Shown here piece after piece: positions 1 through 25,071 of a DNA stretch of 42,758 bases. The stretch covers positions 1-42,758 of the forward strand of contig CAMLIA010000013.1 of the NCBI GenBank assembly GCA_946479905.1, read 5' to 3'. Source of the stretch: an uncultured Frankiales bacterium. GTDB taxonomy: Bacteria; Actinomycetota; Actinomycetes; Mycobacteriales; SCTD01. The translations under genes were made by a program, and so were the position numbers. The notes below the pieces were generated by a model. The model was not told the DNA's origin. It saw only the letters and a program-made list of their open reading frames with translations, and made no database searches. Positions within the stretch are counted from its first letter, which is position 1. Each line of letters opens with the position of its first letter.

Positions 1-1496
1 GGGTTCACCACGTCGAAGGCGATCCCGCGCTCGGTGACCTGCCTGCGCAGCGACTCGTCCACGTCGGCCTCGCAGTAGTAGGTCCCGACCTGGCCGTCGA
101 GGTAGGCGCTCATCGTGGGGCCGCCGAAGCGGGGGGTGTGCACCGAGGTCTCGATGTCCAGGCCGAAGTCGAGGATGTTGAGGGTGTTCTGCACGATGTT
201 CTGGATCAGCCCGACCGACGGGGAGCCGGCAGTGAGCACCGGTGTGCCGTCCTTGAAGATGATCGTGGGCGCGACGTAGCAGGAGCCGCGGCCGCCGGCC
301 TTCGGCAGGTTGCCCAGGAAGTGCACGGCACCGGCCCACAGCGGCACCCCGTCGACGTACAGGCCGTTGGTCCACGGCAGGCTCATGACCGAGTGCAGGA
401 CGCTCGCGACGTTGCCGTCCTTGTCGACCACGGTGACGTGGTTCGAGCCCGGGTACGGCGGACTGCCGACTGCCTTCGGGTCGCTCGTCCGCATCAGCTC
501 GAACCGCTGGGCGGCGTACTCCTTGCTCGTGATGAGGTCCAGCGGGACGTAGTGGTCGCGCGGGTCGCGCTGGTTGAAGCCGTCGGCGTACACCTCGCCG
601 CAGAACCGGGTCAGCCAGTACAGGGTGTCCGCGCTCTGCGTCGGGGGGCCCCACTCCAGCAGCGGGATCTGCTCGACCAGGTTGAGGATCTCGATGACGT
701 GCGTGCCGCCCCGGTCCGGCGGCGGGGAGCCGACCACGTCGTAGCCGCGGTAGCTGCCCCGGGCCGGCTCCATCCAGCGCGCCTCGTAGTCCTCCAGGTC
801 CTGTCGCGTCAGCACCCCACCGGCGGCCTGCACGGTGTCGACCACCTTCTGCGCGAAGGCGCCGCGGTAGAACCAGTCGTTGCCCTCGTCCACCAGGTGG
901 GTCAGCGTCTCGGCGAGACGCGGCTGGCGCAGCACCTCGCCGACGTCGATCAGGCGGCCGCTCGGGAAGAACACCTCCTGGCCGTCGCGGGAGCGGCCGA
1001 GCGTCGCCATCTGCTCGAAGGCCATGCCGTAGAGGAAGGGGTAGACCTCGAAGCCCTCGCTCGCGAGCTCGATCGCGGGGGCGACGAGGTCGGCCTTCTT
1101 CATCGACCCGTGCCGCTCCAGCGCCGCCTCGAAGGCAGCCCAGAAGCCCGGCACCGCAACGCTTCTCGCGGTCGCGATGTCGGCCTGCGTGAACGACAGC
1201 AGGTCCTTCGGACGGGCCATCGAGCCGTTGAGGTAGGTCGTCTGCCCCGTCGCGGCGTCGAAGTAGAGCAGCGACAGGACACCGCAGATCGTCGTCATGT
1301 GCGGTTCGACCACCGTCTGCGCCACGCTCGCCGCGAGTGCCGCGTCAGCGGCGTTGCCCCCCGCACGCAGGGTGTCGGTCGCGACCCGGGTCACGATCGG
1401 GTGACTGGTGACGGCGATGCCCTCGCTGCCCTGCGCGGCCTGCTTGCGCCCGAAGCGCGCCGCGTCCGTCAGCTCCTTGCGGGTGGAGAGGTCCAT
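1..1496 (-). CDS. GGT-fold Ntn-hydrolase (gamma-glutamyltransferase family), 3' end beyond window
   Basis: About 498 residues are visible; the C-terminus lies off the left edge. The GGT fold is clear from RAGGNAADAALAA near the N-terminus, VTVVDKDGN at the autoprocessing junction, and APTIIFKDG. The ATG at 1494-1496 follows a purine-rich GGGAAGGA at 5-nt spacing. From remembered alignment with E. coli GGT, the processing threonine is replaced by serine (GSNH, residue 351, codon 444-446). The oxyanion Gly-Gly of GSPGGS is Ser-Val (GSPSVG). The glutamate-binding Arg of DFRE is absent (LNGSM), and the NNQMDD aspartate region is LWAGAVHF. I see no signal peptide, unlike periplasmic GGTs. It is transcribed away from the FAD oxidase at 1596, with an operator between them. 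It is a sure member of the GGT superfamily but probably not a glutathione-using GGT; the acyl substrate is unknown. Confidence 0.85.
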   Translation of the reverse strand, partial: MDLSTRKELTDAARFGRKQAAQGSEGIAVTSHPIVTRVATDTLRAGGNAADAALAASVAQTVVEPHMTTICGVLSLLYFDAATGQTTYLNGSMARPKDLLSFTQADIATARSVAVPGFWAAFEAALERHGSMKKADLVAPAIELASEGFEVYPFLYGMAFEQMATLGRSRDGQEVFFPSGRLIDVGEVLRQPRLAETLTHLVDEGNDWFYRGAFAQKVVDTVQAAGGVLTRQDLEDYEARWMEPARGSYRGYDVVGSPPPDRGGTHVIEILNLVEQIPLLEWGPPTQSADTLYWLTRFCGEVYADGFNQRDPRDHYVPLDLITSKEYAAQRFELMRTSDPKAVGSPPYPGSNHVTVVDKDGNVASVLHSVMSLPWTNGLYVDGVPLWAGAVHFLGNLPKAGGRGSCYVAPTIIFKDGTPVLTAGSPSVGLIQNIVQNTLNILDFGLDIETSVHTPRFGGPTMSAYLDGQVGTYYCEADVDESLRRQVTERGIAFDVVN

Positions 1497-1535
1497 CAAC
1501 GTCCTTCCCGGGATGACGGGGCGCCCGCCATGTCC

Positions 1536-1551
1536 AGATTGTTGACAATCT
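1536..1551. promoter_or_regulatory. GntR-type operator 1 between the divergent GGT-like and FAD oxidase genes
   Basis: A perfect inverted repeat, AGATTGT-TG-ACAATCT (7-bp arms, 2-bp centre). It is the exact reverse complement of the site at 2690-2705. Embedded TTGACA (1542-1547) is a consensus -35 for the oxidase gene, with a weak AAGACT (1566-1571) 18 bp later, so a bound repressor would occlude the promoter. ATTGTnnACAAT is typical of FCD-type GntR operators. The cognate regulator is inferred to be the GntR protein encoded at 8463-9167. Confidence 0.75.
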
Positions 1552-1595
1552 TGCGGTCCCACGTCAAGACTCCTCGGTCGACGGGAGGGATCCTC

Positions 1596-2648
1596 GTGAC
1601 GGTGGTCGTGGTGGGCGGCGGTGCGATGGGTGCCGCGACAGCCTGGTGGCTCACGCGGCAGGGGCAGCGCGTCACGCTCCTGGAGCAGTTCGCTCCCGGC
1701 CACGACCAGGGCAGCTCGCACGGACGTGCGCGGATCTTCCGGCTGGCCTACCGCGATCCCGCGTACGTCGCCCTGGCCCGCCGGGCGCAGCAGCTGTGGC
1801 GCGTCCTCGAGGAGGCCTCGGGCACCCAGTTGCTCGAGGTCACCGGCGGCCTGGACCACGGCCCGGTGCCCGTCATCGCCGAGCTGCGGCGCTCGCTCGA
1901 GGACAACGGGATCGCCACGGAGCAGCTCTCCCCTGCCGAGGCGCACGACCGCTGGCCCGGCATGCGGTTCGACGAGGCCGTGCTCCACCAGCCCGAGGCC
2001 GGCCGGCTGCACGCCGACGGGACGCTGCGGGCTCTGCACGGGCTCCTGCAGACCGAGGGCGTCGACGTCCGCCACGGCGTCCGGGCCCTCGACGTGCGCG
2101 AGCGCTCAGGTCACGTCGAGGTGGACACCACCGACGGCACCGTCGTCGGCGACGTGGTCGTCCTCGCGGTCGGGGCGTGGGTGCCGTCGCTGACCAGGTC
2201 CCTTCCCTTCGCCGCTGAGCTGCCGCGCTTCCGGGTGACCCAGGAGCAGCCGGGCTACTTCCGGGTGCTCGATGACACGCCGTACCCCTCCTTCCTGCAC
2301 CACGACGAGTCCGAGACGCGCCTGGGCTTCGGGTCGTACGGCATGCTCTCGCCCGACCGCGGGCTCAAGGTCGGCCTGCACGGCGCCGGGATCGAGGTCG
2401 ACCCCGACGATCGGCCAGCGCTCTCCCCCGACGGGGTGCGCCGGCTCACCGACTACGTCGCGGAGTGGTTCCCGGGTGCCTTCCCGGAGCCGCTGCACGT
2501 CGACTCCTGCCTCTACACGAGCACCCCGGACGAGAGCTTCGTGCTGCGCCGGTGGGGACGGGTCGTCGTCTGCTCGCCGTGCTCCGGCCACGGCTTCAAG
2601 TTCGTCCCCGCGATCGGCGAGCTGGTCGCGGCCCTCGCGCTGCAGTAG
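1596..2648 (+). CDS. Covalent-FAD amine oxidase, monomeric sarcosine / L-pipecolate oxidase family
   Basis: This 350-aa flavoprotein should oxidise a secondary amine (sarcosine, N-methyl amino acid or pipecolate type) to an imine with reduction of O2 to H2O2. The N-terminal dinucleotide fold is VVVVGGGAMGAATAW, followed by SSHGRARIFRLAY, a hallmark of the MSOX/MTOX/PIPOX family. Cys305 in CLYTSTPDESF matches the cysteine that carries covalent FAD in MSOX. Lys258 and His262 in GLKVGLH match the O2-activating lysine and active-site histidine, and the C-terminus has SGHGFKF. I chose the GTG at 1596 because GGGAGG lies 7 nt upstream and the fold begins at residue 2; the frame is open much further upstream but that part is antisense to the hydrolase gene. 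With ALDH7 and HglS nearby, pipecolate is the preferred guess, but the substrate cannot be read from sequence. Confidence 0.9.
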   Translation: MTVVVVGGGAMGAATAWWLTRQGQRVTLLEQFAPGHDQGSSHGRARIFRLAYRDPAYVALARRAQQLWRVLEEASGTQLLEVTGGLDHGPVPVIAELRRSLEDNGIATEQLSPAEAHDRWPGMRFDEAVLHQPEAGRLHADGTLRALHGLLQTEGVDVRHGVRALDVRERSGHVEVDTTDGTVVGDVVVLAVGAWVPSLTRSLPFAAELPRFRVTQEQPGYFRVLDDTPYPSFLHHDESETRLGFGSYGMLSPDRGLKVGLHGAGIEVDPDDRPALSPDGVRRLTDYVAEWFPGAFPEPLHVDSCLYTSTPDESFVLRRWGRVVVCSPCSGHGFKFVPAIGELVAALALQ

Positions 2649-2654
2649 CCCGTC

Positions 2655-2684
2655 TTGCGCTCCCATCCCCGTCACACGTACCCT
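2655..2684 (+). promoter_or_regulatory. Promoter of the DUF885-to-gntR operon
   Basis: TTGCGC (2655-2660) and TACCCT (2679-2684) are separated by 18 bp, a plausible sigma-70-type promoter. The predicted start of transcription falls about 7 nt later, inside the operator at 2690-2705, which suits steric repression. Prediction only. Confidence 0.5.
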
Positions 2685-2689
2685 GCCGC

Positions 2690-2705
2690 AGATTGTCAAC
2701 AATCT
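2690..2705. promoter_or_regulatory. GntR-type operator 2, before the catabolic operon
   Basis: AGATTGT-CA-ACAATCT, a perfect 7-bp-arm inverted repeat and the reverse complement of operator 1 at 1536-1551. It overlaps the expected transcription start and lies just before the GAGAGGG ribosome-binding site of the gene at 2721. Because the gntR gene is the last gene of this run, the site implies autoregulation together with substrate-controlled induction. Confidence 0.75.
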
Positions 2706-2720
2706 GAGAGGGTTCTCCTG

Positions 2721-4355
2721 GTGCAGCACCACGCGCTCGCACGGCTGTCCGACGACTTCTTCGACGTGAAGGTCGAGCTGGACCCGCTCTCCGCATCGCT
2801 CATGGGCATCGACCGCGGGGCAGACCGGCTGCCGGACCTCAGCGCAGAGGGTCACGCCGCGTTCGCCGCACGACTGCGCGCGCTCGAGCAGCAGGTGCTC
2901 GGTCTGGACGAGCAGGCGCTGGACGAGGAGGACCGGGTCACCCGGCAGGTGCTGCTCCACGAGCTGTCGACCACCGCGACGTCGCTGGAGGACAGCGCTG
3001 TGGAGATGTCCGCCGGTGGTCCGCTGTCACCGTTCGCCCTGCTGCTCAGCGTGCTCCCCAAGACGGAGCGGAGCAGCTCTGCCACGGACTACGTCGCCCG
3101 GCTGCGTGCCGTCCCGGAGCTGCTGGCTCAGGCGGTGCAGCGGTTCGACACGGGTGCCGCGACGGGTCGCACCTGCACCCGGCGCGCGCTCGAGCAGACG
3201 ATCGGGCAGATCGACAGCGTCCTGCAGGCGCAGGGGGCCCCGTTCTGCCAGCCCTTCCCCGCCGACGAGTCCGTCGTCACCGTCGCCCAGGACGTGGTGG
3301 TCCCCGCGCTCGCCGTCTTCCGCGACCAGCTCACCCGGCTGCTGCCCGGTGCGCGCGACGCGGAGCACAGCGGACTCGTGCACGTCCCCGGCGGGCTGGA
3401 GAGCTACGCCCACGTCGTGCGGGAGCACACCACGACGGGCCGGACGCCGGAGGAGATCCACCAGCTGGGGTTGGAGATGTGCGCCGCCCTTCGCGAGGAG
3501 TACGCCGTGCTGGGCGAGAAGGTCTTCGGGACACGGGACTTCGCGGAGGTCGTGGACCGGCTGCGGCGCGACCCGGAGCTCCGGTACCGCGCGCCGGAGG
3601 AGATCGAGGCAGATGCCAGGGCCGCTCTGGCCCGCGCGGAGCAGGCCCTCCCCGCGTGGTTCGGGATGCGGCACCGCGCGGCCTGCGAGGTGCACCGGAT
3701 GAGCGACGTGGAGGCTCCCACCGGGGTGCTGGGCTACTACCAGCCGTCGTCGACGAAGCTCGGCCGCCCGGGCCGCCACTGGATCAACACCCACGCGCCT
3801 CAGACGCGGACGCGCTACGAGTACGAGACGCTCGCCTTCCACGAGAGCGTCCCCGGCCATCACCTGCAGTTCGCCCTGGCCGACGAGCTCAGCGCGTTGC
3901 CGGCCTTCCGCCGCAACGGGTACGTCACCGCCTTCGGCGAGGGCTGGGCGCTCTACACCGAGCGGCTCTGCGACGAGATGGGGCTGTACTCCTCCGACCT
4001 CGCCCGCTTCGGCATGCTGTCGTTCGACTCCTGGCGGGCCTGCCGGCTGGTCGTGGACACCGGCATCCACGCCTTCGGGTGGACCCGGCAGCGCGGCGTC
4101 GAGTTCATGCAGGCGAACACCGCACTGACGGCGGAGAACATCAGCAACGAGGTCGACCGCTACATCGCGTGGCCCGGCCAGGCGCTGGCCTACATGACGG
4201 GCCGCCTCGAGATCGACCGGCTCCGGCGTCTCGCCGAGGAGCAGCGCGGCGCGCGCTTCGACATCAGGGACTTCCACGACGTGGTCCTCGGCGGTGGCAG
4301 CCTGCCGCTGACGGTCCTCGACGACGTCGTGAGCCGTTGGGCCGCAGCGGCATGA
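2721..4355 (+). CDS. DUF885 family metallopeptidase-like protein
   Basis: A 544-aa protein of the DUF885 family, which is related to zinc carboxypeptidases. The metal-site motif HESVPGHH is at residues 374-381, followed by FGEGWALYTERL, which supplies the next glutamate, and by the family C-terminal block with EVDRYIAWPGQALAYMTG. No signal peptide or membrane segment is seen, so it should be cytosolic. The GTG at 2721 is preceded by GAGAGGG at 8-nt spacing; the frame stays open upstream but through the operator. It is the first gene of a run of five, with the next gene starting 4 nt after its stop. In this setting it could release an amino acid from a peptide or conjugate before oxidation; that role is inferred. 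Confidence 0.85.
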   Translation: MQHHALARLSDDFFDVKVELDPLSASLMGIDRGADRLPDLSAEGHAAFAARLRALEQQVLGLDEQALDEEDRVTRQVLLHELSTTATSLEDSAVEMSAGGPLSPFALLLSVLPKTERSSSATDYVARLRAVPELLAQAVQRFDTGAATGRTCTRRALEQTIGQIDSVLQAQGAPFCQPFPADESVVTVAQDVVVPALAVFRDQLTRLLPGARDAEHSGLVHVPGGLESYAHVVREHTTTGRTPEEIHQLGLEMCAALREEYAVLGEKVFGTRDFAEVVDRLRRDPELRYRAPEEIEADARAALARAEQALPAWFGMRHRAACEVHRMSDVEAPTGVLGYYQPSSTKLGRPGRHWINTHAPQTRTRYEYETLAFHESVPGHHLQFALADELSALPAFRRNGYVTAFGEGWALYTERLCDEMGLYSSDLARFGMLSFDSWRACRLVVDTGIHAFGWTRQRGVEFMQANTALTAENISNEVDRYIAWPGQALAYMTGRLEIDRLRRLAEEQRGARFDIRDFHDVVLGGGSLPLTVLDDVVSRWAAAA

Positions 4356-4359
4356 GCAG

Positions 4360-5517
4360 GTGAGCCGAGTGACCTCGGACCGCGCCGACGTCGTGGTGGT
4401 GGGAGGCGGCGTCATCGGGTGCGCCATCGCCTACGAGCTCGCCGCCGCCGGGCTGGACGTCGTGCTGCTGGAGGCCGGCGAGCTCGGCGCCGGTTCGACC
4501 GCCAAGGCCGCCGGAGGCATCCGCTCCTCCTTCAGCGACCCGGTGAACATCGCCATGGGCAAGCGGGGGCTGGACGTGTACGCGGGGTTCAAGGAGCGGT
4601 TCGACCAGGACATCGACTTCCGGCGGCACGGCTACCTGTTCTCCCTCAGCGACCAGACGAGCCTGGCGTCCTTCGAGCGCTCGGTGGCCCTGCAGAACGA
4701 GGTCGGCATCGCCAGCCGCTTCGTCGACGCCGGGCAGGCCCGTGAGCTCTCCCCGCTGCTGTGCACCGACGACGCGCTGGCGCACGTCTACTCGCCGCAC
4801 GACGCGCAGGCCACGCCGGACGCCGTCGTGCAGGGCTACGCCCGGGCCGCCCGCAGGGCCGGGGCACGGCTGCTGCCGGGGACGCCGGTCATCGGCGTCG
4901 AGGTCGACGGCGGGGCAGTGCACGGTGTCCGTACCGCGTCGACGACCTATCGGGCGCCGAAGGTGGTCTGCGCCGCGGGGGCCTGGTCCGGCCGCATCGG
5001 GCAGCTGGCCGGCGTCGCGCTGCCCGTGACCCCCTCGCGCCGGGTGGTCGCCTTCACCGGGCCGGTCTTCGACGCACCCCGCGCGTGGCCGCTGACCGTC
5101 GACTTCCCGTCCGCGCTGTACTTCCACCCGGAGGGCCGGGGCGTCGCGGTGGGCTGGACGGACCCGCACGAGCCGGATGGCTTCGACCTCACCGTGCGGC
5201 TGCAGCAGTGGCTGGAGCGCGCCGCCCCGGACATCGCCCGGCGCGCGCCTGCGCTGCTCGACCTGCCCCTGCGCCGTGCCTGGGCGGGGCTGTACGAGAA
5301 CACCCCCGATCACAACCAGGTCATCGGCAGCTCCGACGACGTGGACGGCTTCCTCTACGCCACCGGGTTCTCCGGGCACGGCTTCCTCATGGCACCGGCC
5401 ACGTCCGAGGTCGTGCGCGACCTCGTGCTCGGCAAGGAGCCGGAGTTCGACATCAGCGGCTTCGCGGTCGAGCGCTTCGCCCGTGCCGACCTCCGCCTCG
5501 AGCACAACGTCATCTGA
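4360..5517 (+). CDS. FAD-dependent amine oxidase, DadA / sarcosine oxidase beta type
   Basis: A 385-aa flavoprotein of the DAO superfamily. The FAD fold is VVVVGGGVIGCAIAYELA, followed by STAKAAGGIRSSF typical of the SoxB/DadA branch, and the C-terminal FAD-contact segment is GLYENTPDHNQVIG with ATGFSGHGFLMAP. It lacks the CxYTxTPDE covalent cysteine seen in the other oxidase at 1596, so FAD is expected to be non-covalent. It should oxidise a secondary amine or amino acid; L-pipecolate, D-amino acids or N-alkyl amino acids are possibilities. GTG at 4360 is used; GTG at 4369 (residue 4) has a better-placed AGGTGAG and may be the real start. Its stop overlaps the next start in ATGA. Confidence 0.85.
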   Translation: MSRVTSDRADVVVVGGGVIGCAIAYELAAAGLDVVLLEAGELGAGSTAKAAGGIRSSFSDPVNIAMGKRGLDVYAGFKERFDQDIDFRRHGYLFSLSDQTSLASFERSVALQNEVGIASRFVDAGQARELSPLLCTDDALAHVYSPHDAQATPDAVVQGYARAARRAGARLLPGTPVIGVEVDGGAVHGVRTASTTYRAPKVVCAAGAWSGRIGQLAGVALPVTPSRRVVAFTGPVFDAPRAWPLTVDFPSALYFHPEGRGVAVGWTDPHEPDGFDLTVRLQQWLERAAPDIARRAPALLDLPLRRAWAGLYENTPDHNQVIGSSDDVDGFLYATGFSGHGFLMAPATSEVVRDLVLGKEPEFDISGFAVERFARADLRLEHNVI

Positions 5518-6896
5518 TGAGCCGCTTCGTCTCGACCGCCGAGCTGCGGTCGCGCTTCGCCGCCGCGCTGTCGGCGCTGTACGCACGAGAGGTCCCGGCC
5601 TACCGCACGCTCGTCGAGGTCACGCAGCGCGTGAACGCCCAGGTGCGTCGCCGCGAGGGCCGCAGCGCCGGGGACGGCGACCGCGTCGACGTCGAGCGGC
5701 ACGGTGCGATCCGGGTCGGGTCGGCACGCGAACTGGCAGCGGTCGCGCGGCTCTTCGCCGGGCTCGGCATGCACCCGGTCGGCTGCTACGACCTCAGGGC
5801 CTCCGGGGTACCAGTGGTGGCGACCGCCTTCCGGCCGATCGAGCAGGACGAGCTCGCGGCCAACCCGTTCCGGGTCTTCACGTCGATGCTCACGCTGGAC
5901 GACCGGACCTCCTTCACGCAGGACCTGGCTGACCGGGCGCAGCGCTTCCTCGACGCACGCCGGCTGCTGTCGGAGGAGCTGCTCGTCCTGGCGGACCGGG
6001 CGGCCGCGAACGGCGGGCTCGACCACGACGACGCGGCCGCGCTCGTGACGCAGGCTGCAGCGTCGTTCCAGCTGACGACCACGCCTGTCGACCGGACCTG
6101 GTACGCGGAGCTGGCTGCGGTGTCCCCGGTGGCCGCAGACATCGCCGGGGTGCCCACCACGCACCTCAACCACCTGACGCCACGCGTGCTGGACATCGAC
6201 GAGCTGTGGCAGCAGATGACTCAGGCGGGCGTCGAGATGATCCCGGAGATCCAGGGGCCGCCGCGCTGGGACGGCCCGGACGTGCTGCTGCGGCAGACGT
6301 CGTTCCAGGCGCTCGCGGAGCGGCGGCTGTTCCGCGAGCCCGACGGGAGCACCAGCGAGGGTCGGCTCCGGGTCCGCTTCGGGGAGGTCGAGGCCCGCGG
6401 CATCGCGCTCACACCGGTGGGCGCGGAGCTGTACGCCACGGCGCTGCACGACGTGGACGCCCGCTGCGCCGCTGAGCCCGACGTCCCGCGGCAGGTCGTC
6501 CTGCGGCAGGTGTGGGAGCGCACGTTCCCTCACACCGAGCGCGAGCTGCTCCTGCGGGGGCTCGGGGTCTTCACCGTCGCGCCGGTGCTCGACCGGGCGC
6601 GGGACGGCCGGGAGCCGGCCGGCTCGCTGCTCGAGCTGCTGGACGCGGGGTTCCTCACCGCGACGCCCGTCGGGTACGAGGACTTCCTGCCGCGGTCGGC
6701 CGCCGGCATCTTCCGCTCCAACCTGGACGGTGCCCCGCGGGCGGCGTCCGGCGGCAAGGACCGCTACGACGGTGACCGGCTCGAGGGCATCCTCGATCGG
6801 CCCCTGCACGACGCGCACGACCTCTACCGGCAGCAGGCCGACCGGTCCGTGCGGGACTCCCTGACCCTGCTCGGACTCCAGGAGGCACGCACATGA
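5517..6896 (+). CDS. hglS: DUF1338 / HglS-type 2-oxoadipate dioxygenase-decarboxylase
   Basis: A 459-aa protein of the DUF1338 (YdcJ/HglS) family. HglS of Pseudomonas putida is an Fe(II) enzyme converting 2-oxoadipate to D-2-hydroxyglutarate with loss of CO2 in lysine catabolism. Candidate metal ligands are His62 in ERHGAIR, the His216/His219 pair in THLNHLTPRV, and Glu290 or Glu292 in FGEVEARG, with spacing close to the reported His70/His226/Glu294. MHPVGCYDLR and AFRPI are further family blocks. The start ATG overlaps the previous stop (ATGA, 5517-5520), indicating translational coupling. In P. putida, hglS lies beside genes for an FAD pipecolate oxidase and an ALDH7, as here. No D-2-hydroxyglutarate dehydrogenase or aminoadipate transaminase is in the window. 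Confidence 0.85.
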   Translation: MSRFVSTAELRSRFAAALSALYAREVPAYRTLVEVTQRVNAQVRRREGRSAGDGDRVDVERHGAIRVGSARELAAVARLFAGLGMHPVGCYDLRASGVPVVATAFRPIEQDELAANPFRVFTSMLTLDDRTSFTQDLADRAQRFLDARRLLSEELLVLADRAAANGGLDHDDAAALVTQAAASFQLTTTPVDRTWYAELAAVSPVAADIAGVPTTHLNHLTPRVLDIDELWQQMTQAGVEMIPEIQGPPRWDGPDVLLRQTSFQALAERRLFREPDGSTSEGRLRVRFGEVEARGIALTPVGAELYATALHDVDARCAAEPDVPRQVVLRQVWERTFPHTERELLLRGLGVFTVAPVLDRARDGREPAGSLLELLDAGFLTATPVGYEDFLPRSAAGIFRSNLDGAPRAASGGKDRYDGDRLEGILDRPLHDAHDLYRQQADRSVRDSLTLLGLQEART

Positions 6897-6915
6897 GCGA
6901 GGCGCACACATGAGC
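6882..6915 (+). repeat. 17-bp tandem duplication of a ribosome-binding site plus ATG
   Basis: Two adjacent 17-bp units (6882-6898 and 6899-6915) match at 15 of 17 positions. Each contains GAGGC, seven nucleotides and ATGAGC. The first ATG (6893) overlaps the hglS stop and opens a six-codon frame (MSEAHT) whose TGA (6911-6913) overlaps the second ATG (6910), the aldehyde dehydrogenase start. The sequence therefore forms a stop/start relay between the two genes. Confidence 0.8.
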
Positions 6916-8442
6916 GCGGTGGCGCTGACCAGCACCGAGGAGCTCCGCGACCGGGTGCGCACCGCCCTCCGCAGGTGCGGGGCCGAGGTCGACGACGCCG
7001 CCGCGAGCGGTGTCGTCGCCCGCACGCCCCTCACCGGCGAGCCGCTCCTGCGCGTCCCCACCGTGAGCGCGTCGCAGGTGTCGGAAGCCGTCGACGTCGC
7101 CGAGCAGGCGTTCCTGCAGTGGCGCACGACCCCGGCACCCGTGCGCGGGCTGCTGGTCAAGCGCCTGGGCCAGCTCCTCAGCGCGCACAAGGAGGACCTC
7201 GCCGACCTCGTGACCGTCGAGGCGGGCAAGATCCGCACCGAGGCGCTCGGCGAGGTCCAGGAGATGATCGACATCTGCGACTTCGCCGTCGGCCTGTCCC
7301 GGCAGGTCGGTGGCGTCACGTTGCCGTCCGAGCGCCCCGGGCACCGCCTGATGGAGACCTGGCACCCACTGGGGGTCGTCGGGGTGATCTCGGCGTTCAA
7401 CTTCCCCGTCGCGGTGTGGGCGTGGAACACCACGATCGCGCTCGTCTGCGGCAACGCCGTGGCCTGGAAGCCCTCCGACAGCACGCCGCTGACGGCGATC
7501 GCGTGCGACGCCCTCCTGCAGCGGGCCGCCCGCGACGTGGCGGCGCCCCCTGGTCTCCACCAGCTGCTGGTCACGGACCTGGACGGGGCGACCGCGCTGG
7601 TCGACAGCCCGAAGGTGCCGCTCATCAGCGCGACCGGGTCCGAGCGCATGGGCCGGGCCGTGGCTCCCCGGGTCGCGGCCCGCTTCGGCCGCACCATCCT
7701 CGAGCTCGGCGGCAACAACGCCGCCATCGTCGCCCCGAGCGCCGACCTGGACCTCGCCGCCCGCGCCATCACCTTCGCGGCGGCCGGTACGGCCGGCCAG
7801 CGGTGCACCACCCTGCGTCGGCTTCTCGTGCACGACAGCGTCGTCGAGGACCTCCTCGAGAGGGTGACCCGCGCGTTCGGCAGCATCGCCGTCGGCGACC
7901 CGCTCGAGCCGGCCACGCTGGTCGGGCCGCTCATCGACCGCCGCGCCTTCGACGCCATGCAGTCGGCGATCGAGCAGGCACAGGCCGACGGGGGCGAGCT
8001 GGTCGTCGGAGGGTCCCGCGTCGAGACGCCCGCGCCCGGGGCGTACTACGTGCGACCGGCGGTCGTGCGGATGCCGGCGCAGACGGCCCTCGTCCACCGC
8101 GAGACCTTCGCCCCACTGCTCTACGTCCTGACGTACCGGACGCTGCCGGAGGCCCTCGACCTGCACAACGCCGTCCCGCAGGGGCTGTCCTCGGCGATCT
8201 TCACGCGCGACGTGCAGGAGGCCGAGCTGTTCCTGTCCTCAGCGGGTTCCGACTGCGGCATCGCCAACGTCAACCTGGGGACGTCGGGCGCGGAGATCGG
8301 GGGCGCCTTCGGCGGGGAGAAGACGACCGGTGGCGGGCGCGAGTCCGGGTCGGACGCGTGGAAGGGCTACATGCGCCGTGCCACCAACACGATCAACTAC
8401 TCTTCGGACCTCCCTCTGGCACAGGGCGTTCAGTTCGCCTGA
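6910..8442 (+). CDS. amaB: ALDH7-type aldehyde dehydrogenase (aminoadipate semialdehyde dehydrogenase)
   Basis: A 510-aa NAD(P)-dependent aldehyde dehydrogenase. The catalytic Cys299 is in AGQRCTTLRRL and the general base Glu265 in LELGGNNAAI; both motifs are the ALDH7 (antiquitin/AmaB) variants rather than the common GQ-C-A/S forms. FNFPVAVWAWNT and WKPSD are the substrate and cofactor segments. ALDH7 enzymes oxidise 2-aminoadipate-6-semialdehyde, in equilibrium with piperideine-6-carboxylate, to 2-aminoadipate. That product, once transaminated, gives the HglS substrate. The N-terminus is extended by roughly 20 residues. It is translated through the stop/start relay at 6893-6913. The symbol is by analogy with Pseudomonas; other ALDH7 substrates such as betaine aldehyde are possible. 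Confidence 0.87.
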   Translation: MSAVALTSTEELRDRVRTALRRCGAEVDDAAASGVVARTPLTGEPLLRVPTVSASQVSEAVDVAEQAFLQWRTTPAPVRGLLVKRLGQLLSAHKEDLADLVTVEAGKIRTEALGEVQEMIDICDFAVGLSRQVGGVTLPSERPGHRLMETWHPLGVVGVISAFNFPVAVWAWNTTIALVCGNAVAWKPSDSTPLTAIACDALLQRAARDVAAPPGLHQLLVTDLDGATALVDSPKVPLISATGSERMGRAVAPRVAARFGRTILELGGNNAAIVAPSADLDLAARAITFAAAGTAGQRCTTLRRLLVHDSVVEDLLERVTRAFGSIAVGDPLEPATLVGPLIDRRAFDAMQSAIEQAQADGGELVVGGSRVETPAPGAYYVRPAVVRMPAQTALVHRETFAPLLYVLTYRTLPEALDLHNAVPQGLSSAIFTRDVQEAELFLSSAGSDCGIANVNLGTSGAEIGGAFGGEKTTGGGRESGSDAWKGYMRRATNTINYSSDLPLAQGVQFA

Positions 8443-8462
8443 GCGCTCCGAGCAGCGCGAAG

Positions 8463-9167
8463 GTGGTGGCGTTGGCACCGGAGTCGCGGCCCGTCTCGCC
8501 CGTCGCCGCCGCTGCCGCGTCCGTGCGCAACGCCATCGCCACCGGTGCTCTGCAGCCTGGCCAGCGCATCAAGGAGATCCCCGTCGCGGCGTCCCTGGGG
8601 CTGTCGCGCGGACCTGTCCGGGAAGCGCTGCGGCTGCTCGTCGAGGAGGGGCTGGTCACCCTCGTCCCCAACGTCGGGGCGAGCGTCGCGCCGGTCCACT
8701 ACCAGGACCTGATGGAGCTGTACGCCCAGCGGCTCGCCCTCGGCGCGCTCGCGCTGCGCAGCCTCGCAGGCAGCGAGGACCTCGCTGACGCCACCGCCCG
8801 GCTGCACGACCTGGCGGCCGCGGTGAAGCGCAAGGACCCCGCCGCAGCCGTCGAGGCCGACCTGGTCTTCCAGGACGCGCTCATCGGCAGCTCGTCGCTG
8901 CAGCGCACCGTCCGGCTGTTCGAGCGCACCACGATCCAGCTGCGGGTCTACGCCGGCATGCTCGGCGTCGACTACAAGAGACGGCTTCCCGCGATGCACC
9001 GCGAGGACGCGGAGCTGCTGGAGCTCGTGCGCAGCGGCGACCTCCGCGCGCTGCAGGCGCTCTGGCGCAGCAAGCTCGAGGGCTGGCTCGAGGTCTTCGT
9101 GCTCCAGGTGGGCGAGCCCTTCGACCCGCAGCTGTGGCGCAGGACCTACGTCGGCGACCTCGACTGA
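8463..9167 (+). CDS. GntR-family regulator, FCD subfamily
   Basis: A 234-aa transcription factor. The N-terminal winged helix contains GQRIKEIPVAASLGLSRG and PVREALRLLVEEGLV, followed by an all-helical FCD ligand domain (about residues 85-215) with EADLVFQDALIGSS and HREDAELLELVRSGD, whose Asp/His positions usually bind a metal and a small acid. It closes the five-gene operon, so it most likely senses a pathway intermediate. The operators at 1536-1551 and 2690-2705 fit its family. The GTG at 8463 is a best guess; a second GTG at 8466 is equally possible and no strong ribosome-binding site is present, suggesting low-level coupled translation after the dehydrogenase. Confidence 0.87.
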   Translation: MVALAPESRPVSPVAAAAASVRNAIATGALQPGQRIKEIPVAASLGLSRGPVREALRLLVEEGLVTLVPNVGASVAPVHYQDLMELYAQRLALGALALRSLAGSEDLADATARLHDLAAAVKRKDPAAAVEADLVFQDALIGSSSLQRTVRLFERTTIQLRVYAGMLGVDYKRRLPAMHREDAELLELVRSGDLRALQALWRSKLEGWLEVFVLQVGEPFDPQLWRRTYVGDLD

Positions 9168-12080: not shown

Positions 12081-13130
12081 TCACCGGAAGCCCTCCTGCA
12101 GCTCGGCGAGCGTCGCCGACCCCGGGCACAACCGGTCGTAGGGCAGCGACGCGAGGGCTGTCTGCGGTGTGCCGCTGAGCTCGTGCAGGTCGGGAACGCT
12201 CTCGTCGGCGTACACCAGGCCGGTGACGACCTCGCCCGCCGCGTGCCGCTCCTGCAGGTACAGCGCCGCCGCTCCGCGGTCGGTCGGGTCGTAGCCCTCC
12301 GGGACCGCGCGGAAGCGCATCTCCGTGCCGTCGTGCATCGGCACGGTCAGCACGCCCTCGTCCGGGACGTGGCCGACGATCGTCTCCCGGGGAGGGACGA
12401 AGTCGGTGGCCGTGACCTCGTGCTCGCGGGTGAACCGGTAGCTCTTCGTCGAGCCCTCGTGGTCGTTGAACTGCACGCACGGCGAGATGACGTCGACCAG
12501 CGCGAGGCCGCGATGGGCCAGCCCGGCCTTGAGGATCGGCACCAGCCGCTGCTTGTCGCCGGAGAAGCCGCGCGCGACGAACGTGGCCCCGAGGCTGAGG
12601 CCCATCAGCAGCGGGTCGATCGGCGCGAACGCGTTGGCCTCCCCCTTCTTGGTCGTCGAGCCGATGTCGGCGGAGGCGGAGAACTGGCCCTTGGTGAGGC
12701 CGTAGACGCCGTTGTTGTCGATGACGTAGAGCATCCGGATGTTGCGGCGCACCGCGTGCACGAGGTGCCCGACCCCGATCGAGAGCGAGTCGCCGTCGCC
12801 GGAGATCCCGATGTAGTGCAGCTCGCGGTTCGCCGCGATGGCGCCGGTCGCGATGGTGGGCATCCGGCCGTGCACCGAGTTGAACCCGTGGGCGTCACCC
12901 GCGAAGTAGGCGGTCGTCTTCGACGAGCACCCGATGCCGGACAGCTTCGCCACCATGTGCGGCGGGATGCTGAGCTCGAACAGCGCCTGGATGAGCGCCG
13001 CGGTGACCGAGTCGTGCCCGCAGCCGGCGCACAGGGTGGACATCGCGCCGTCGTAGGCGCGCGGGGTCAGGCCCAGGTCGTTGCGGCGCAGCGGTGCGAG
13101 CGGGACGAGCGGCTTGGCGATGGACGGCAC
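12081..13130 (-). CDS. korB: 2-oxoacid:ferredoxin oxidoreductase, beta (TPP) subunit
   Basis: A 349-aa thiamine-diphosphate subunit of a 2-oxoacid:ferredoxin oxidoreductase, probably 2-oxoglutarate specific. It has the CAGCGHDS cysteine cluster near residue 33, GCSSKT, and the TPP-Mg block GDGDSLSIGVGHL followed by IDNNGVYGLTKGQFS. With KorA it converts 2-oxoglutarate and CoA to succinyl-CoA, giving electrons to ferredoxin. GTG at 13130 follows the korA stop by 4 nt. Such KorAB pairs support the TCA cycle in Mycobacterium and many other actinobacteria. Pyruvate or branched-chain specificity is not excluded by motif reading alone. Confidence 0.87.
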   Translation of the reverse strand: MPSIAKPLVPLAPLRRNDLGLTPRAYDGAMSTLCAGCGHDSVTAALIQALFELSIPPHMVAKLSGIGCSSKTTAYFAGDAHGFNSVHGRMPTIATGAIAANRELHYIGISGDGDSLSIGVGHLVHAVRRNIRMLYVIDNNGVYGLTKGQFSASADIGSTTKKGEANAFAPIDPLLMGLSLGATFVARGFSGDKQRLVPILKAGLAHRGLALVDVISPCVQFNDHEGSTKSYRFTREHEVTATDFVPPRETIVGHVPDEGVLTVPMHDGTEMRFRAVPEGYDPTDRGAAALYLQERHAAGEVVTGLVYADESVPDLHELSGTPQTALASLPYDRLCPGSATLAELQEGFR

Positions 13131-13134
13131 GAGC

Positions 13135-14940
13135 TCACTCGCCCCCTGTCTGCGTGAGGATGCTGTCGACGACCAGCTTGGCGGACAGCGGCATGCCGCC
13201 GTACACGAGCACCGAGCGCAGCCGGGCCGTGCTGACGCCCGTCTCGAGGACCAGCAGCGAGCGCAGCTGGGCGTCGCGGTTCTGCTCCACGACGAAGCAC
13301 AGCTCGTGCTCGTCGAGGAACGCGCGCACCGACGGCGGGAAGGGGAAGCCGCGGACCCGCATCACGTCGACGAAGACGTCCTTGTCGGCGAGCAGCTCAG
13401 CCGCCTCGCGGACCGCGAGGTCACCGCTGCCCAGCGACACGATGCCGATCCGCGCCCCCGGTCGGCGGTGCACGACGGGCGGCGGCACGTGCAGCGCGGC
13501 GGCGGTGTGCTTGTGCACCAACCGGTCCACGACCTGCTGGTACTTGTCCGGCATCTCGGTGTACGCGCCTTGCGCGTCGTGGCCGGACCCCCGGACGAAG
13601 TACGCCCCTGCCGGGCCCACTCCGGGCAGGGTGCGCGGGGTCACGAACTCGGCGTCCTCGTCGGCGTAGCGGTTGAACCGGGGCAGCGCGTGCAGGTCCT
13701 CGCTGCTGAGCACGCGGCCGCGGTCGGGCAGGAACGCGTCGTCCCACTGCAGCTCCGGCACCACCCAGTCGTTCATGCCGATGTCGAGGTCGGACAGCAT
13801 CATGACCGGCGTCTGGAAGCGCTCGGCGAGGTCGAAGGCCTGCACCGCCATCTCGAAGCACTCAGCGGGGTCGGCCGGGAACAGCAGGATGTGCTTGGTG
13901 TCGCCGTGCGAGGCGTAGGCGCACAGCAGCAGGTCGGCCTGCTGGGTGCGGGTCGGCATCCCCGTCGACGGCCCGGTGCGCTGCACGTCGACGATGACGG
14001 CGGGGATCTCGGCGTAGTAGGCGAAGCCGAGCAGCTCGTTCATCAGCGAGATGCCCGGGCCGGAGGTGGCGGTGAAGGCGCGGGCGCCGTTCCAGCTGGC
14101 CCCGACCACCATGCCGAGCGCCGCGAGCTCGTCCTCGGCCTGCACGATGAGGTAGTCGTTCTCGCCCTCGCGCGTGCGGTACCGCTTGCAGAGCGAGGCG
14201 AAGTTGTCCATGACCGAGGTCGACGGGGTGATCGGGTACCAGGCGGCGACGGTGGCTCCGGCGTACAAGCACCCGAGCGCGGTGGCGGTGTTGCCGTCGA
14301 TGAGGATCTTGCCCGCGGTCGCGTCCATCGTCTCGAGGCGGAACGGCAGCGGGTGCTCGAGGTGCTCGACGGCGTAGTCGTGGCCGAGCCGCAGCGCGAG
14401 CTGGTTGGCGTCGCGCAGCTTGGCCTTGCCGGCGAAGGTCTCGTCGAGCAGCGTCGAGACGACCTCGACGTCCACGCCGAGCAGCGCGACGAGCGCTCCC
14501 GCGTAGCAGATGTTCTTGAGCAGCAGCCGGTCGCGGGCGCGCTCGAAGTGCGCTGCGCACAGCTCGGCGAGCGGGACGCCGAGGAAGGTCACGTCCGGTC
14601 GCAGCAGCTCGCCCGGCAGCGGCCACGACGAGTCGTACAGCACGTAGCCGCCGCTGCGGACCTCCGCGACGTCGGCGGCGTAGGTCTGGCTGTTCATGGC
14701 GACCATGAGGTCGTAGTCGAGGGCCCGGGCGGTGTGCCCCTCGCCGTTGACCCGGATCTCGTACCAGGTCGGGAGCCCCTGGATGTTGGAGGGGAAGAGG
14801 TTCTTGCCGGAGACGGGGATCCCCATCCGGAAGATCGCCTTCATGAGCAGGCTGTTCGCGCTGGCCGAGCCGGTGCCGTTGACGTTGGCGAGCTTCACCG
14901 CGAAGTCGTTGACCCGGACCTGCTGCTGGGTCGTCGTCAT
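13135..14940 (-). CDS. korA: 2-oxoacid:ferredoxin oxidoreductase, fused gamma-alpha subunit
   Basis: A 601-aa fusion. Residues about 1-190 are the gamma domain (ANVNGTGSASANSLLMKA, QGLPTWYEIRVN), and about 195-600 are the alpha domain with AAWYPITPSTSVMDN, EDELAALGMVVGAS and TATSGPGISLMNE. The gamma-alpha order is that of KorA in the two-subunit actinobacterial enzyme. The ATG at 14938-14940 overlaps the end of korC by 4 nt (ATGA), so the three genes are translationally coupled. The frame remains open upstream within korC; the N-terminal TTTQQQVRVNDFAVK before the gamma domain supports the chosen start. Confidence 0.9.
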   Translation of the reverse strand: MTTTQQQVRVNDFAVKLANVNGTGSASANSLLMKAIFRMGIPVSGKNLFPSNIQGLPTWYEIRVNGEGHTARALDYDLMVAMNSQTYAADVAEVRSGGYVLYDSSWPLPGELLRPDVTFLGVPLAELCAAHFERARDRLLLKNICYAGALVALLGVDVEVVSTLLDETFAGKAKLRDANQLALRLGHDYAVEHLEHPLPFRLETMDATAGKILIDGNTATALGCLYAGATVAAWYPITPSTSVMDNFASLCKRYRTREGENDYLIVQAEDELAALGMVVGASWNGARAFTATSGPGISLMNELLGFAYYAEIPAVIVDVQRTGPSTGMPTRTQQADLLLCAYASHGDTKHILLFPADPAECFEMAVQAFDLAERFQTPVMMLSDLDIGMNDWVVPELQWDDAFLPDRGRVLSSEDLHALPRFNRYADEDAEFVTPRTLPGVGPAGAYFVRGSGHDAQGAYTEMPDKYQQVVDRLVHKHTAAALHVPPPVVHRRPGARIGIVSLGSGDLAVREAAELLADKDVFVDVMRVRGFPFPPSVRAFLDEHELCFVVEQNRDAQLRSLLVLETGVSTARLRSVLVYGGMPLSAKLVVDSILTQTGGE

Positions 14941-18504: not shown

Positions 18505-19626
18505 TCACGCCAGCGCGCCGACCTCGGCGGTGCGGTTGCGGACCAGGTCGTTGTAGGCCTGACCCGGTCCGATGGCGTCCCACAGCGTCGGCGGGTAGTA
18601 GGTGACGTACATCGTGCGGCGGCCGCCCTGGGCGGTCGGGGCCGGCGAGGCGTGCATGACGTCCTGGATGTGGACGGTCACGTCACCCGGCTCGGTGTCG
18701 ACCTCGACGACGGGGGCGTCGGTCTGCTTGTCCCAGCGGTAGTGCAGCGTCTGGCCGTGGCTGCCCGGCACCACGAGCAGGTTGCCGGTCTCGGGGCTCG
18801 AGCCGGTGAGCTGGATGCCCATGCTCACGCTCGGGCAGAAGATCGCGTGGCCGCCCATGCCGCAGTCCTGGTGCCACGGGATGTTGGACAGCCCGCGGGT
18901 CTGCCCGGGGACCTTGATGAGGACGGCGCTGCCCTCCATCCGGTCCGGCGCCGGCTTGAGCGCCGGGTCGAGCAGGGTGCCGAGCCGCTGGATGCGGGGG
19001 TCCTGCTCCAGGCGCTGCAGCACGGCGGACCGCTGGGTCGCGTAGACGAGGCGGCACAGCCGCTGGCCCTCGTCGGTGTCGACGAACCAGCTCTGGTCGT
19101 CCCCCGGCGCGGCGAGCGCGGCCAGCCGGTCGACGTCGGCGTTGGCCGCGGCCATCTCCGCCGGCGTGAAGACGCCCTTCACGAGCAGGTAGCCCATCGT
19201 CGTCAGCTGCTCGCGCAGCTCGTCGTCGCTGTCGGCCAGGGTCAGCGCGGCCCGTGGGTCGCGTCCCCGGAGGTCGGCGCGCTCCGGGTCGTAGGGCGGG
19301 ACTCCGCTGTGCAGGTACCGCAGCGTCCGGTCCCACGCGGCGAGGTGGTCGAAGTCGCCGCGCTCGAAGGTCAGCTCGCCCGCCAGCAGCAGCCCGATGG
19401 GGGTACGCACCTGGCTCACCAGGTCGGCCCAGGCCTGCGCGCTGAGCGTGACGACCGTGTCGCCGTCGCGGTCGGCGGTCTCCGTGACCTGGCCGCCGTC
19501 GGCGCGGTAGGTCAGGGCGGCGTCACCGACGGCGAAGGTGATCGACCCCGCGCGGGCGACGTCACGGGTGACGGCGGCCAGGGCCTGGGGGTCGAGGTCG
19601 GCGGGGCGAGCGGGCGCGAGCGTCAT
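18505..19626 (-). CDS. Phytanoyl-CoA dioxygenase-like enzyme with N-terminal SCP2-like domain
   Basis: A 373-aa protein. Residues about 1-100 look like an SCP2 lipid-binding fold (GSITFAVGDAALTYRADGG, VVTLSAQAWADLV, LLAGELTFERGDF). Residues about 125-370 are a PhyH-type Fe(II)/2-oxoglutarate oxygenase with iron ligands His252 and Asp254 (WHQDCG) and His325 (DVMHASP), and the 2-oxoglutarate arginine in GGRRTMYVTYY. A hydrophobic or lipid-like substrate is suggested by the fusion; the reaction is unknown. The ATG at 19626 is chosen because the upstream part of the frame runs through the TetR operators. It is divergent from tetR (19681) and probably repressed by it. Confidence 0.83.
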   Translation of the reverse strand: MTLAPARPADLDPQALAAVTRDVARAGSITFAVGDAALTYRADGGQVTETADRDGDTVVTLSAQAWADLVSQVRTPIGLLLAGELTFERGDFDHLAAWDRTLRYLHSGVPPYDPERADLRGRDPRAALTLADSDDELREQLTTMGYLLVKGVFTPAEMAAANADVDRLAALAAPGDDQSWFVDTDEGQRLCRLVYATQRSAVLQRLEQDPRIQRLGTLLDPALKPAPDRMEGSAVLIKVPGQTRGLSNIPWHQDCGMGGHAIFCPSVSMGIQLTGSSPETGNLLVVPGSHGQTLHYRWDKQTDAPVVEVDTEPGDVTVHIQDVMHASPAPTAQGGRRTMYVTYYPPTLWDAIGPGQAYNDLVRNRTAEVGALA

Positions 19627-19637
19627 GGACAGCAGTC

Positions 19638-19655
19638 TGCAAGACCGGTCTTGCA
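19638..19655. promoter_or_regulatory. TetR operator 1
   Basis: An 18-bp perfect palindrome, TGCAAGACCGGTCTTGCA, beginning 11 nt upstream of the oxygenase start codon. Its core GCAAGA-N4-TCTTGC is repeated in operator 2 with centres 21 bp apart, two helical turns. Confidence 0.8.
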
Positions 19656-20229: not shown

Positions 20230-20263
20230 CCCCCGCCTGCGCATTCATCGCGGGGAGGGGTCA
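20227..20263. terminator. Bidirectional hairpin between tetR and phoU
   Basis: TGACCCC (20227-20233) pairs with GGGGTCA (20257-20263), and CCCCGC (20231-20236) can alternatively pair with GCGGGG (20250-20255). The hairpin spans the 31-bp gap between the convergent tetR and phoU stops and includes both stop codons. No T-tract. Confidence 0.5.
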
Positions 20264-20926: not shown

Positions 20927-20936
20927 CCTGTGCTCC

Positions 20937-21713: not shown

Positions 21714-21716
21714 GAG

Positions 21717-23746: not shown

Positions 23747-23771
23747 CAGGGCTCCTCGCGGAAACGGTGTC

Positions 23772-23811
23772 GCGGTGCGGACCGGACCCCGAGGGATCCG
23801 GCCCGCACCGC
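23772..23811 (-). terminator. Intercistronic hairpin between pstS and pstC
   Basis: GCGGTGCGG-A-CCGGA (23772-23786) and TCCGG-C-CCGCACCGC (23797-23811) form a 15-bp stem with one internal A/C mismatch on the plus strand, which becomes a G-U pair in the pst mRNA, and a 10-nt loop. It may act as a partial terminator or protect the pstS 3' end. Confidence 0.65.
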
Positions 23812-23828
23812 CGTGGGGTCGGGGTCTG

Positions 23829-24935: not shown

Positions 24936-24965
24936 GTCGAGGGTCCTCCGAGAGATGGGTGAGTC

Positions 24966-25056: not shown

Positions 25057-25071
25057 CGCCACCTGAGCGGG

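What the first reader, a model, noticed from the sequence alone, without database searches (positions are those of the whole stretch)
1..9167. Pipecolate/D-lysine-type catabolic cluster with two amine oxidases and two unexpected hydrolases
The window shows an FAD amine oxidase of the PIPOX/MSOX family (1596), a second FAD oxidase (4360), an HglS-type dioxygenase (5517), an ALDH7 (6910) and a GntR regulator. Oxidase + ALDH7 + HglS is the known P. putida route from pipecolate to D-2-hydroxyglutarate. The extra DUF885 peptidase-like protein and the altered GGT-fold hydrolase are not part of that route. I infer that the true substrate is a conjugated or N-modified lysine/pipecolate-like compound that must first be released by hydrolysis and perhaps N-dealkylated. 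No transaminase or D-2-hydroxyglutarate dehydrogenase is seen.
Basis: partly seen in the sequence, partly recalled or inferred. Interest (0 to 1): 0.78.

Follow-up and report, generated by a model that had tools for sequence, protein, structure and literature searches.

The report
Pipecolate-type regulon with unusual hydrolases
In a G+C-rich actinobacterium-like DNA fragment, a set of seven genes under shared control appears to break a ring-shaped relative of the amino acid lysine down into central metabolism, after first freeing it from a larger molecule that is still unknown.

Summary
Seven genes (1-9167) encode a GGT-fold hydrolase (cut by the window edge), a sarcosine-oxidase-type flavoenzyme, a DUF885 protein, a second DAO-family flavoenzyme, HglS, ALDH7 (P6C dehydrogenase) and a GntR-FCD regulator. 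New here: one 16-bp 7-2-7 inverted repeat lies exactly in the two promoter gaps, once in each orientation, and nowhere else in the window, so hydrolases and oxidases look like one regulon.

Among 39 other HglS loci, an orthologue of the 4360 oxidase stands at 7 and lysine 6-transaminase at 15, never both. I therefore assign the P6C-forming (pipecolate-oxidase-like) step to gene 4360, not to 1596. Gene 1596 keeps the covalent-flavin Cys and carboxylate clamp with an altered aliphatic pocket, and is better read as an N-alkyl amino-acid oxidase. The GGT homologue has Ser for the Thr nucleophile and lacks the gamma-glutamyl-binding Arg. The DUF885 model resembles metallopeptidases.

The seven-gene set was found at none of the 39 loci, and the substrate is unproven. 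I call it a new variant of the known pipecolate to 2-oxoadipate to D-2-hydroxyglutarate route.

The parts
1..1496 (-). GGT-fold Ntn-hydrolase homologue, C-terminus cut by the window start; predicted Ser nucleophile at residue 351 (motif PYPGSNHVTVVD)
1536..1551 (+). operator 1, AGATTGTTGACAATCT (7-2-7 inverted repeat) in the divergent promoter gap
1596..2648 (+). monomeric-sarcosine-oxidase-type FAD amine oxidase (covalent-flavin Cys kept); read as N-alkyl amino-acid oxidase
   Evidence: PF01266; NF008425 243 bits against cut-off 257; 7exs E 3e-55 and alignment to 1el5
2690..2705 (-). operator 2, the same 16-mer in the opposite orientation, upstream of the five-gene run
2721..4355 (+). DUF885 protein, HESVPGHH zinc-type motif; predicted metallopeptidase
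   Evidence: PF05960 E 9e-150; HE..PGH in 121 of 121 sequences; fold comparison
4360..5517 (+). DAO-family oxidase/dehydrogenase, assigned as P6C-forming pipecolate-type oxidase (alternative start 4369)
   Evidence: linked with HglS at 7 of 39 other loci
5517..6896 (+). HglS, 2-oxoadipate dioxygenase/decarboxylase; His62, His219, Glu290 and Arg66 kept
6910..8442 (+). ALDH7, piperideine-6-carboxylate dehydrogenase
   Evidence: NF050084 784 bits over cut-off 730; 6rtr Pcd E 3e-225
8463..9167 (+). GntR-FCD regulator, presumed ligand of both operators (start uncertain, 8463-8523)
   Evidence: PF00392 and PF07729; codon-usage start 8523

Best explanation
This is a GntR-controlled catabolic regulon for a pipecolate-like cyclic amino acid held in a larger, N-modified molecule. 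Inferred order: the DUF885 metallopeptidase and the Ser-type GGT homologue (an amidohydrolase, not a gamma-glutamyl transferase) free the amino acid. The sarcosine-oxidase-type enzyme (1596) removes an N-alkyl group, most simply N-methyl, giving pipecolate, H2O2 and an aldehyde. The second flavoenzyme (4360) oxidises pipecolate to piperideine-6-carboxylate. ALDH7 makes 2-aminoadipate, an enzyme encoded elsewhere deaminates it to 2-oxoadipate, and HglS turns that into D-2-hydroxyglutarate, which is oxidised to 2-oxoglutarate elsewhere. GntR represses both transcripts by binding the two identical operators. Shown here: gene content, active-site residues, operators, and the recurrent DAO-HglS-ALDH7 linkage. 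Inferred: every substrate, the order of steps, and GntR binding.
For: Operators: AGATTGTYRACAATCT has exactly two matches in 42,758 bases even with 3 mismatches (shuffles: mean 0.05; 1 of 100 reaches two; the pattern was taken from the window). They lie in the two promoter gaps and are exact reverse complements of each other. Core: ALDH7 passes the P6C-dehydrogenase equivalog, and its best solved match is Pcd 6rtr. HglS keeps the HHE triad and Arg74; PMC7286885 passages say that Arg confers 2-oxoadipate specificity. Oxidase 4360: orthologues at 7 of 39 other HglS loci, LAT at 15, both at 0, neither at 17. L013, L018 and L045 add a Glu/Leu/Phe/Val-dehydrogenase-family gene and a YdiJ-like FAD/FeS dehydrogenase, which would complete the route (clusters 32 and 31; L013 members identified). 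R. opacus and R. koreensis hold both kinds of locus. Its best solved match, 1y56_B, E 2e-62, is recalled as a dye-linked L-proline dehydrogenase beta subunit. Oxidase 1596: R52, Y55, K265, H269, C315 and K348 are kept; F100V, M245L and Y254L change the pocket (roles from PMC12582975 passages, except K265 and C315, recalled). A 44% relative sits with glutamine-synthetase-like and glutamate-synthase-like genes resembling an N-methylglutamate pathway (L065). Hydrolases: DUF885 lies next to a GGT homologue in L055 and L056, and on common contigs by length match.
Against: No other locus with all seven genes was found; GGT, MSOX and DUF885 were at 0 of 39 other HglS loci. Of the 7 genomes with a DAO-HglS locus, 1 (G973, 39%) has a DUF885 match at E 1e-60 and 5 have an MSOX match at E 1e-30 (33-46%), none of them at the HglS locus. 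The window HglS is divergent: 14 of 112 otherwise conserved positions differ, it has a long branch of unresolved placement, and it falls below the NF050083 cut-off. DAO-linked HglS proteins are not one group in the tree. The 4360 protein does not match AmaA (NF050086, 54 against 600 bits). Co-location of DUF885 and GGT is not general: 1 of 7 loci fetched by DUF885 and 1 of 9 fetched by GGT. LAT/DAO exclusivity is computed on related genomes (hypergeometric P 0.014). Operator binding by this GntR is untested. No amino-acid or peptide importer was recognised in the window.
Confidence: 0.5

Rival explanations
1. The 1596 enzyme is the pipecolate oxidase (like mammalian PIPOX) and the 4360 enzyme oxidatively deaminates 2-aminoadipate to 2-oxoadipate, replacing the missing transaminase.
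For: Both are amine-oxidising flavoenzymes; no aminotransferase was found in the window (42 of 43 genes scanned); sarcosine oxidase accepts cyclic imino acids as minor substrates (PMC12582975, start of abstract and passages).
Against: At L013, L018 and L045 the 4360 orthologue coexists with a Glu/Leu/Phe/Val-family dehydrogenase that could do the deamination, and I recognised no other P6C-forming enzyme there, by eye and clustering only. It and LAT are never at the same locus. Its best solved match is 1y56_B, recalled as a proline dehydrogenase subunit.
Confidence: 0.2
2. A general peptide-scavenging regulon: GGT homologue and DUF885 digest ordinary peptides, and the oxidative genes merely burn the lysine- or proline-type amino acids released.
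Against: A shared, locally unique operator and an HglS/P6C core argue for one C6 amino acid; there is no LAT for free L-lysine and no recognised importer in the window.
Confidence: 0.22
3. The GGT homologue is a genuine gamma-glutamyl hydrolase and the pathway runs through a gamma-glutamylated amine, as in putrescine or methylamine routes.
Against: The Arg114 equivalent is absent in the aligned relatives and Thr391 is Ser; R114L and R114D of E. coli GGT had no detectable activity (PMC8062742 passages). Some extremophile GGTs have Ser at that Arg, and R109S of B. licheniformis GGT kept 85% activity (same passages), so this is not absolute. No gamma-glutamyl synthetase among the 42 scanned genes.
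Confidence: 0.05

Closest known systems
Pseudomonas putida D-lysine/pipecolate route (AmaA, AmaB, transaminase, HglS, YdiJ; gene names recalled)
   Same: HglS chemistry and a P6C dehydrogenase, with a pipecolate-type entry oxidase
   Different: The entry oxidase is not of the AmaA family (54 against 600 bits). The window adds two hydrolases and an N-alkyl oxidase under one operator, and no transaminase or YdiJ was found in it.
Actinobacterial LAT-HglS-Pcd lysine loci (15 of 39 other loci here)
   Same: Related HglS and ALDH7 pair
   Different: LAT absent, a DAO-family oxidase present; different neighbours and added hydrolases
Streptomyces clavuligerus Pcd (6rtr)
   Same: ALDH7, E 3e-225 over almost the full length
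   Different: pcd lies in the cephamycin cluster (PMC9854754 passages); here it stands in a catabolic cluster
Gamma-glutamyltranspeptidase and its homologues LmbA and HpxW
   Different: Ser instead of Thr nucleophile; gamma-glutamyl carboxylate Arg lost
Monomeric sarcosine oxidase / N-methyltryptophan oxidase / PIPOX / NikD
   Same: Family, covalent-flavin Cys, carboxylate clamp; PIPOX membership recalled
   Different: Pocket residues F100V, M245L, Y254L; ends before the last 17-27 residues of 7exs and 1el5; below NCBIfam cut-offs
DUF885 proteins 3o0y, 3iuk, 3u24
   Different: I know of no assigned substrate; the HE..PGH motif suggests a peptidase

Membership tests
P6C dehydrogenase (NCBIfam NF050084) | score above the curated equivalog cut-off | tested here: met
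   784.3 bits against 730
HglS, 2-oxoadipate dioxygenase/decarboxylase | HHE metal triad and the substrate Arg (Arg74 in P. putida) | tested here: met
   H62, H219, E290, R66 in the window protein; importance of triad and Arg from PMC7286885 passages; the H70/H226/E294 numbering was counted along the alignment
HglS, mycobacterial type (NF050083) | curated cut-off 600 bits | tested here: not met
   584.2 bits, 97% of the cut-off; so I do not file it as this equivalog, only as a PF07063 HGLS protein
AmaA L-pipecolate oxidase (NF050086) | curated cut-off 600 bits | tested here: not met
   4360 protein 54.3 bits, 1596 protein 24.9 bits
Monomeric sarcosine oxidase family | covalent-flavin Cys, Arg52/Tyr55/Lys348 carboxylate clamp, Lys265 | tested here: met
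   alignment of the 1596 protein to 1el5, mapped by script; Arg52, Tyr55 and Lys348 from PMC12582975 passages, Cys315 and Lys265 recalled
soxA_mon (TIGR01377) and N-methyltryptophan oxidase (NF008425) | curated cut-offs 479.65 and 257 bits | tested here: not met
   1596 protein: 211.2 and 242.8 bits
True gamma-glutamyltransferase (TIGR00066) | curated cut-off, Thr nucleophile, Arg for the glutamyl carboxylate | tested here: not met
   243 against 358 bits, on a protein truncated at both ends; Ser at the Thr position, no Arg
Ntn-hydrolase of GGT fold (PF01019) | fold and N-terminal nucleophile after autocleavage | tested here: inconclusive
   fold met; autocleavage needs an experiment
Metallopeptidase (gluzincin) for DUF885 | HExxH-type zinc site and peptidase fold | tested here: inconclusive
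P. putida-type pipecolate operon | transaminase and D-2-hydroxyglutarate dehydrogenase in or near the cluster | tested here: not met
   none found among 42 of 43 window genes; the left flank is not available

The most novel reading that the evidence does not exclude
A dedicated pathway for a peptide- or amide-bound, N-methylated pipecolate (a plant- or antibiotic-type residue): a Ser-nucleophile GGT-clade amidohydrolase and a DUF885 metallopeptidase release it, a sarcosine-oxidase-type enzyme N-demethylates it, and a new, non-AmaA pipecolate oxidase feeds HglS. This would give first functions to the Ser-type GGT clade and to DUF885.
Probability: 0.28. Interest if true: 0.65.

Novelty: new variant of a known kind. 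Interest (0 to 1): 0.46.

Why it matters
It separates two entry points into the HglS route in actinobacteria, LAT for L-lysine and a non-AmaA oxidase for what is probably pipecolate. It also places two hydrolase families for which I found no assigned substrate (the Ser-type GGT clade and DUF885) in one regulon with a definite chemistry, which makes their functions testable. PMC5519988 (passages) says that the GGT homologues of Gram-positive actinobacteria were uncharacterised apart from LmbA-like ones.

Tried and rejected
Extending the contig and searching the host genome: no whole genome is held for the window. Host identity: the seryl-tRNA synthetase at 39406-40662 reached at most 66% identity in 32 handled genomes, so no close relative was at hand and the host family is unknown. 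Search for the GGT homologue: phylum sample, 0 of 396 genomes at E 1e-60; order sample, 6 of 397 at 44-48% identity; class sample, 2 of 394 at E 1e-70; one family, 1 of 121 at 37%; the family of G933, 1 of 22, which is G933 itself. G933 holds the one close relative (71%). Plasmids: no GGT or MSOX relative at E 1e-60; 18 records with DUF885 at 32-41% identity, not followed.

DUF885 and MSOX were sought in 15 handled genomes: DUF885 in 5 of 15 at E 1e-60, MSOX in 10 of 15 at E 1e-30. The 11 surroundings fetched from these (L056-L066) showed no HglS cluster.

The exact core ATTGTYRACAAT was absent from 53 of 55 loci held at that time, so conservation of the operator could not be tested. A tree of 40 HglS proteins left the window row on a long branch with unresolved place; the LAT loci group together only weakly (68/94) and DAO-linked HglS proteins do not form one group. 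One DAO locus, L015, has a distant class III aminotransferase relative of LAT (27% identity); I did not count it as LAT.

Contig-length matching used only 18 of 120 DAO, 41 of 120 DUF885 and 44 of 120 GGT rows, chosen by me from the tops of the lists and the long contigs. One of its seven matches (10121) has differing source tags and is treated as doubtful. For the 397396-base Prauserella cavernicola contig, the match does not show adjacency.

Literature: the searches showed, in the listed titles and abstract starts, no paper on this gene set or on a DUF885 function; several lists were cut to 10-20 rows and the library lacks most subscription papers. Gamma-glutamyl chemistry was considered and set aside (rival 3). 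A substrate switch of HglS was considered because of its divergence, and set aside because the catalytic residues are kept.
Full report
What is there. Window 1-9167 holds seven genes. On the minus strand lies a GGT-fold protein that runs off the window start (1-1496). On the plus strand lie a sarcosine-oxidase-type flavoprotein (1596-2648), DUF885 (about 2721-4355), a second DAO-family flavoprotein (4360-5517), HglS (5517-6896), ALDH7 (6910-8442) and a GntR-FCD regulator (to 9167). GC is 72.7%. The best-scoring named relatives of the GGT, DUF885 and 4360 proteins are actinobacterial; GGT relatives at about 57% are also named from Proteobacteria such as Mitsuaria.

Regulation. The 99-base gap between the divergent GGT and 1596 genes and the gap before DUF885 (2649-2720) share one 16-mer, AGATTGTTGACAATCT, in opposite orientations. 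It is an inverted repeat of 7-2-7 form; its two copies are among 15 places of that form in the window. These are the only two matches of the pattern in the window with up to 3 mismatches; shuffles give 0.05 on average, with 1 of 100 reaching two, and the 12-base core with 1 mismatch allowed gives none in 100 shuffles. The pattern was taken from the window itself, so the weight lies in its two places and not in the shuffle count alone. The GntR is the natural candidate binder; this is inferred.

The core chain. ALDH7 passes NCBIfam's P6C-dehydrogenase equivalog (784 against 730 bits) and best matches the solved Pcd 6rtr. HglS matches PF07063 (E 3.5e-124) but falls just under NF050083 (584 against 600). 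It keeps His62, His219, Glu290, Arg66 and Ser394; the Val402 position is Arg, as in 16 of 40 aligned proteins, window included. It is unusually divergent: 14 of 112 conserved columns differ (12.5%), exceeded only by the four Rhodococcus LAT-locus proteins (17-24%) among the 40. PMC7286885 (passages) reports that the Arg gives specificity for 2-oxoadipate and that the R74A mutant is inactive.

Which oxidase makes P6C. HglS occurs in 34 of 394 genomes of a class-wide sample at E 1e-60. With the loci this gave 39 HglS loci besides the window, L001-L005 and L012-L045; several are cut by contig ends, L001, L012 and L021 most. Clustering of called genes shows an orthologue of the 4360 oxidase at 7 (L012, L013, L014, L015, L017, L018, L045), LAT at 15 (representative L002: TIGR03251, 723 bits over the 521 cut-off), neither at 17, both at 0. 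A direct tblastn gives the same 15 LAT loci at 68-100% identity, plus a distant 27% aminotransferase at L015, and the same 7 DAO loci. ALDH7 is also present at 6 of the 7 DAO loci (L012 ends early). Rhodococcus opacus and R. koreensis each have one LAT locus and one DAO locus. L013, L018 and L045 also carry a Glu/Leu/Phe/Val-dehydrogenase-family gene and a relative of YdiJ. There the DAO protein is the only candidate for making P6C that I recognised, so I assign that step to it. The exclusivity (hypergeometric P 0.014) is not corrected for kinship. DAO-linked HglS proteins are not one clade. The 4360 protein is not AmaA (54 against 600 bits); its best solved relative is 1y56_B, E 2e-62, followed by glycine oxidase 4ysh at E 2e-31. 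That 1y56 is an L-proline dehydrogenase complex is recalled; the entry's chain is labelled sarcosine oxidase.

The 1596 oxidase. The alignment to 1el5 keeps Arg52, Tyr55, Lys265, His269, Cys315 and Lys348, while Phe100, Met245 and Tyr254 become Val, Leu and Leu. PMC12582975 (start of abstract and passages) names Arg52, Tyr55 and Lys348 as the carboxylate clamp and Phe100, Met245 and Tyr254 as the pocket, and reports cyclic imino acids as minor substrates of sarcosine oxidase. So the enzyme should oxidise a secondary or tertiary amino acid, probably larger than sarcosine. No relative stood at any of the other HglS loci. A 44% relative in G933 sits beside glutamine-synthetase-like, glutamate-synthase-like and amidotransferase genes, as in an N-methylglutamate route (L065; the pathway reading is recalled). 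A 46% relative lies between peptide-type ABC transporters (L064, read by eye).

Do the two hydrolases belong together? They lie under the same operator here. DUF885 and a GGT homologue are adjacent in L055 (DUF885 29% over 192 residues, GGT 37%) and L056 (56% and 29%), with an AspA/AstE-type hydrolase or M19 and S58 peptidases around. By equal contig length, DUF885 and GGT share contigs of 9936, 7804, 26598 and 397396 bases (the last Prauserella cavernicola), and DUF885 and DAO share contigs of 5005 and 11573 bases (part of the rows only). Against this, only 1 of 7 loci fetched by DUF885 (L056-L061, L066) and 1 of 9 fetched by GGT (L046-L052, L054, L055) show the pair at E 1e-3, and only 1 of the 7 genomes with a DAO-HglS locus has a DUF885 match at E 1e-60. 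In L052 the 71% GGT relative stands among a peptide-type ABC transporter (by eye), an S9 peptidase, an amidohydrolase and an aminotransferase.

Conclusion. The core route is well supported by family membership and neighbourhoods (my estimate 0.75). The assignment of 4360 as P6C-forming is about 0.65, 1596 as N-alkyl oxidase about 0.5, and release of a conjugate by the two hydrolases about 0.45. The whole chain as stated is about 0.5 in outline and 0.28 for an N-methylated pipecolate conjugate in particular. N-methylpipecolate and homostachydrine occur as terms in food and plasma metabolomics papers (search listing only), so such compounds are at least reported. The seven-gene set itself was not seen elsewhere, and the window is cut at the GGT end, where a transporter may lie.

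Noticed in passing
window 19638-19655: Perfect 18-base palindrome TGCAAGACCGGTCTTGCA in the gap between a TetR gene (19681-20229) and a PhyH-family dioxygenase gene (18505-19626, minus): a likely TetR operator.
   Followed up: partly
window 5517-6896: The HglS protein is unusually divergent (14 of 112 conserved columns differ, long branch) although catalytic residues are kept.
   Followed up: partly
window 2600-2648: The 1596 oxidase ends where the solved chains 7exs and 1el5 have 17 and 27 more residues; a short C-terminus or an early stop.
   Followed up: no
window 12081-16727: 2-oxoacid:ferredoxin oxidoreductase-type subunits with a GltD-like FAD/FeS protein just downstream on the other strand; a possible sink for 2-oxoglutarate, no link shown.
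   Followed up: no
window 31484-32434: NAD-type D-2-hydroxyacid dehydrogenase gene; its substrate is unknown.
   Followed up: no
window 20261-26924: Phosphate-type ABC operon with PhoU and a two-component system.
   Followed up: no
L046-L051 and L054: Thr-type GGT homologues (43-48% to the window) recur with an MFS transporter (by eye) and, where the locus reaches far enough, LacI-like (by eye) and caprolactamase-like A/B subunits (NCBIfam run on L046 only; below the cut-off there); a DAO protein accompanies six of the seven.
   Followed up: partly
L018, L045 against L002, L005: Rhodococcus opacus and R. koreensis carry two HglS-ALDH7 loci each, one with LAT and one with the DAO oxidase.
   Followed up: yes
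L059, L060, L061: Tandem DUF885 genes (41-44% to the window) in three genomes, with conserved neighbours but no GGT nearby.
   Followed up: no
L055 (G1201): DUF885 and a GGT homologue in tandem behind a solute-binding-protein ABC system, followed by IclR and AspA/AstE-type genes: an independent DUF885-GGT pair.
   Followed up: partly
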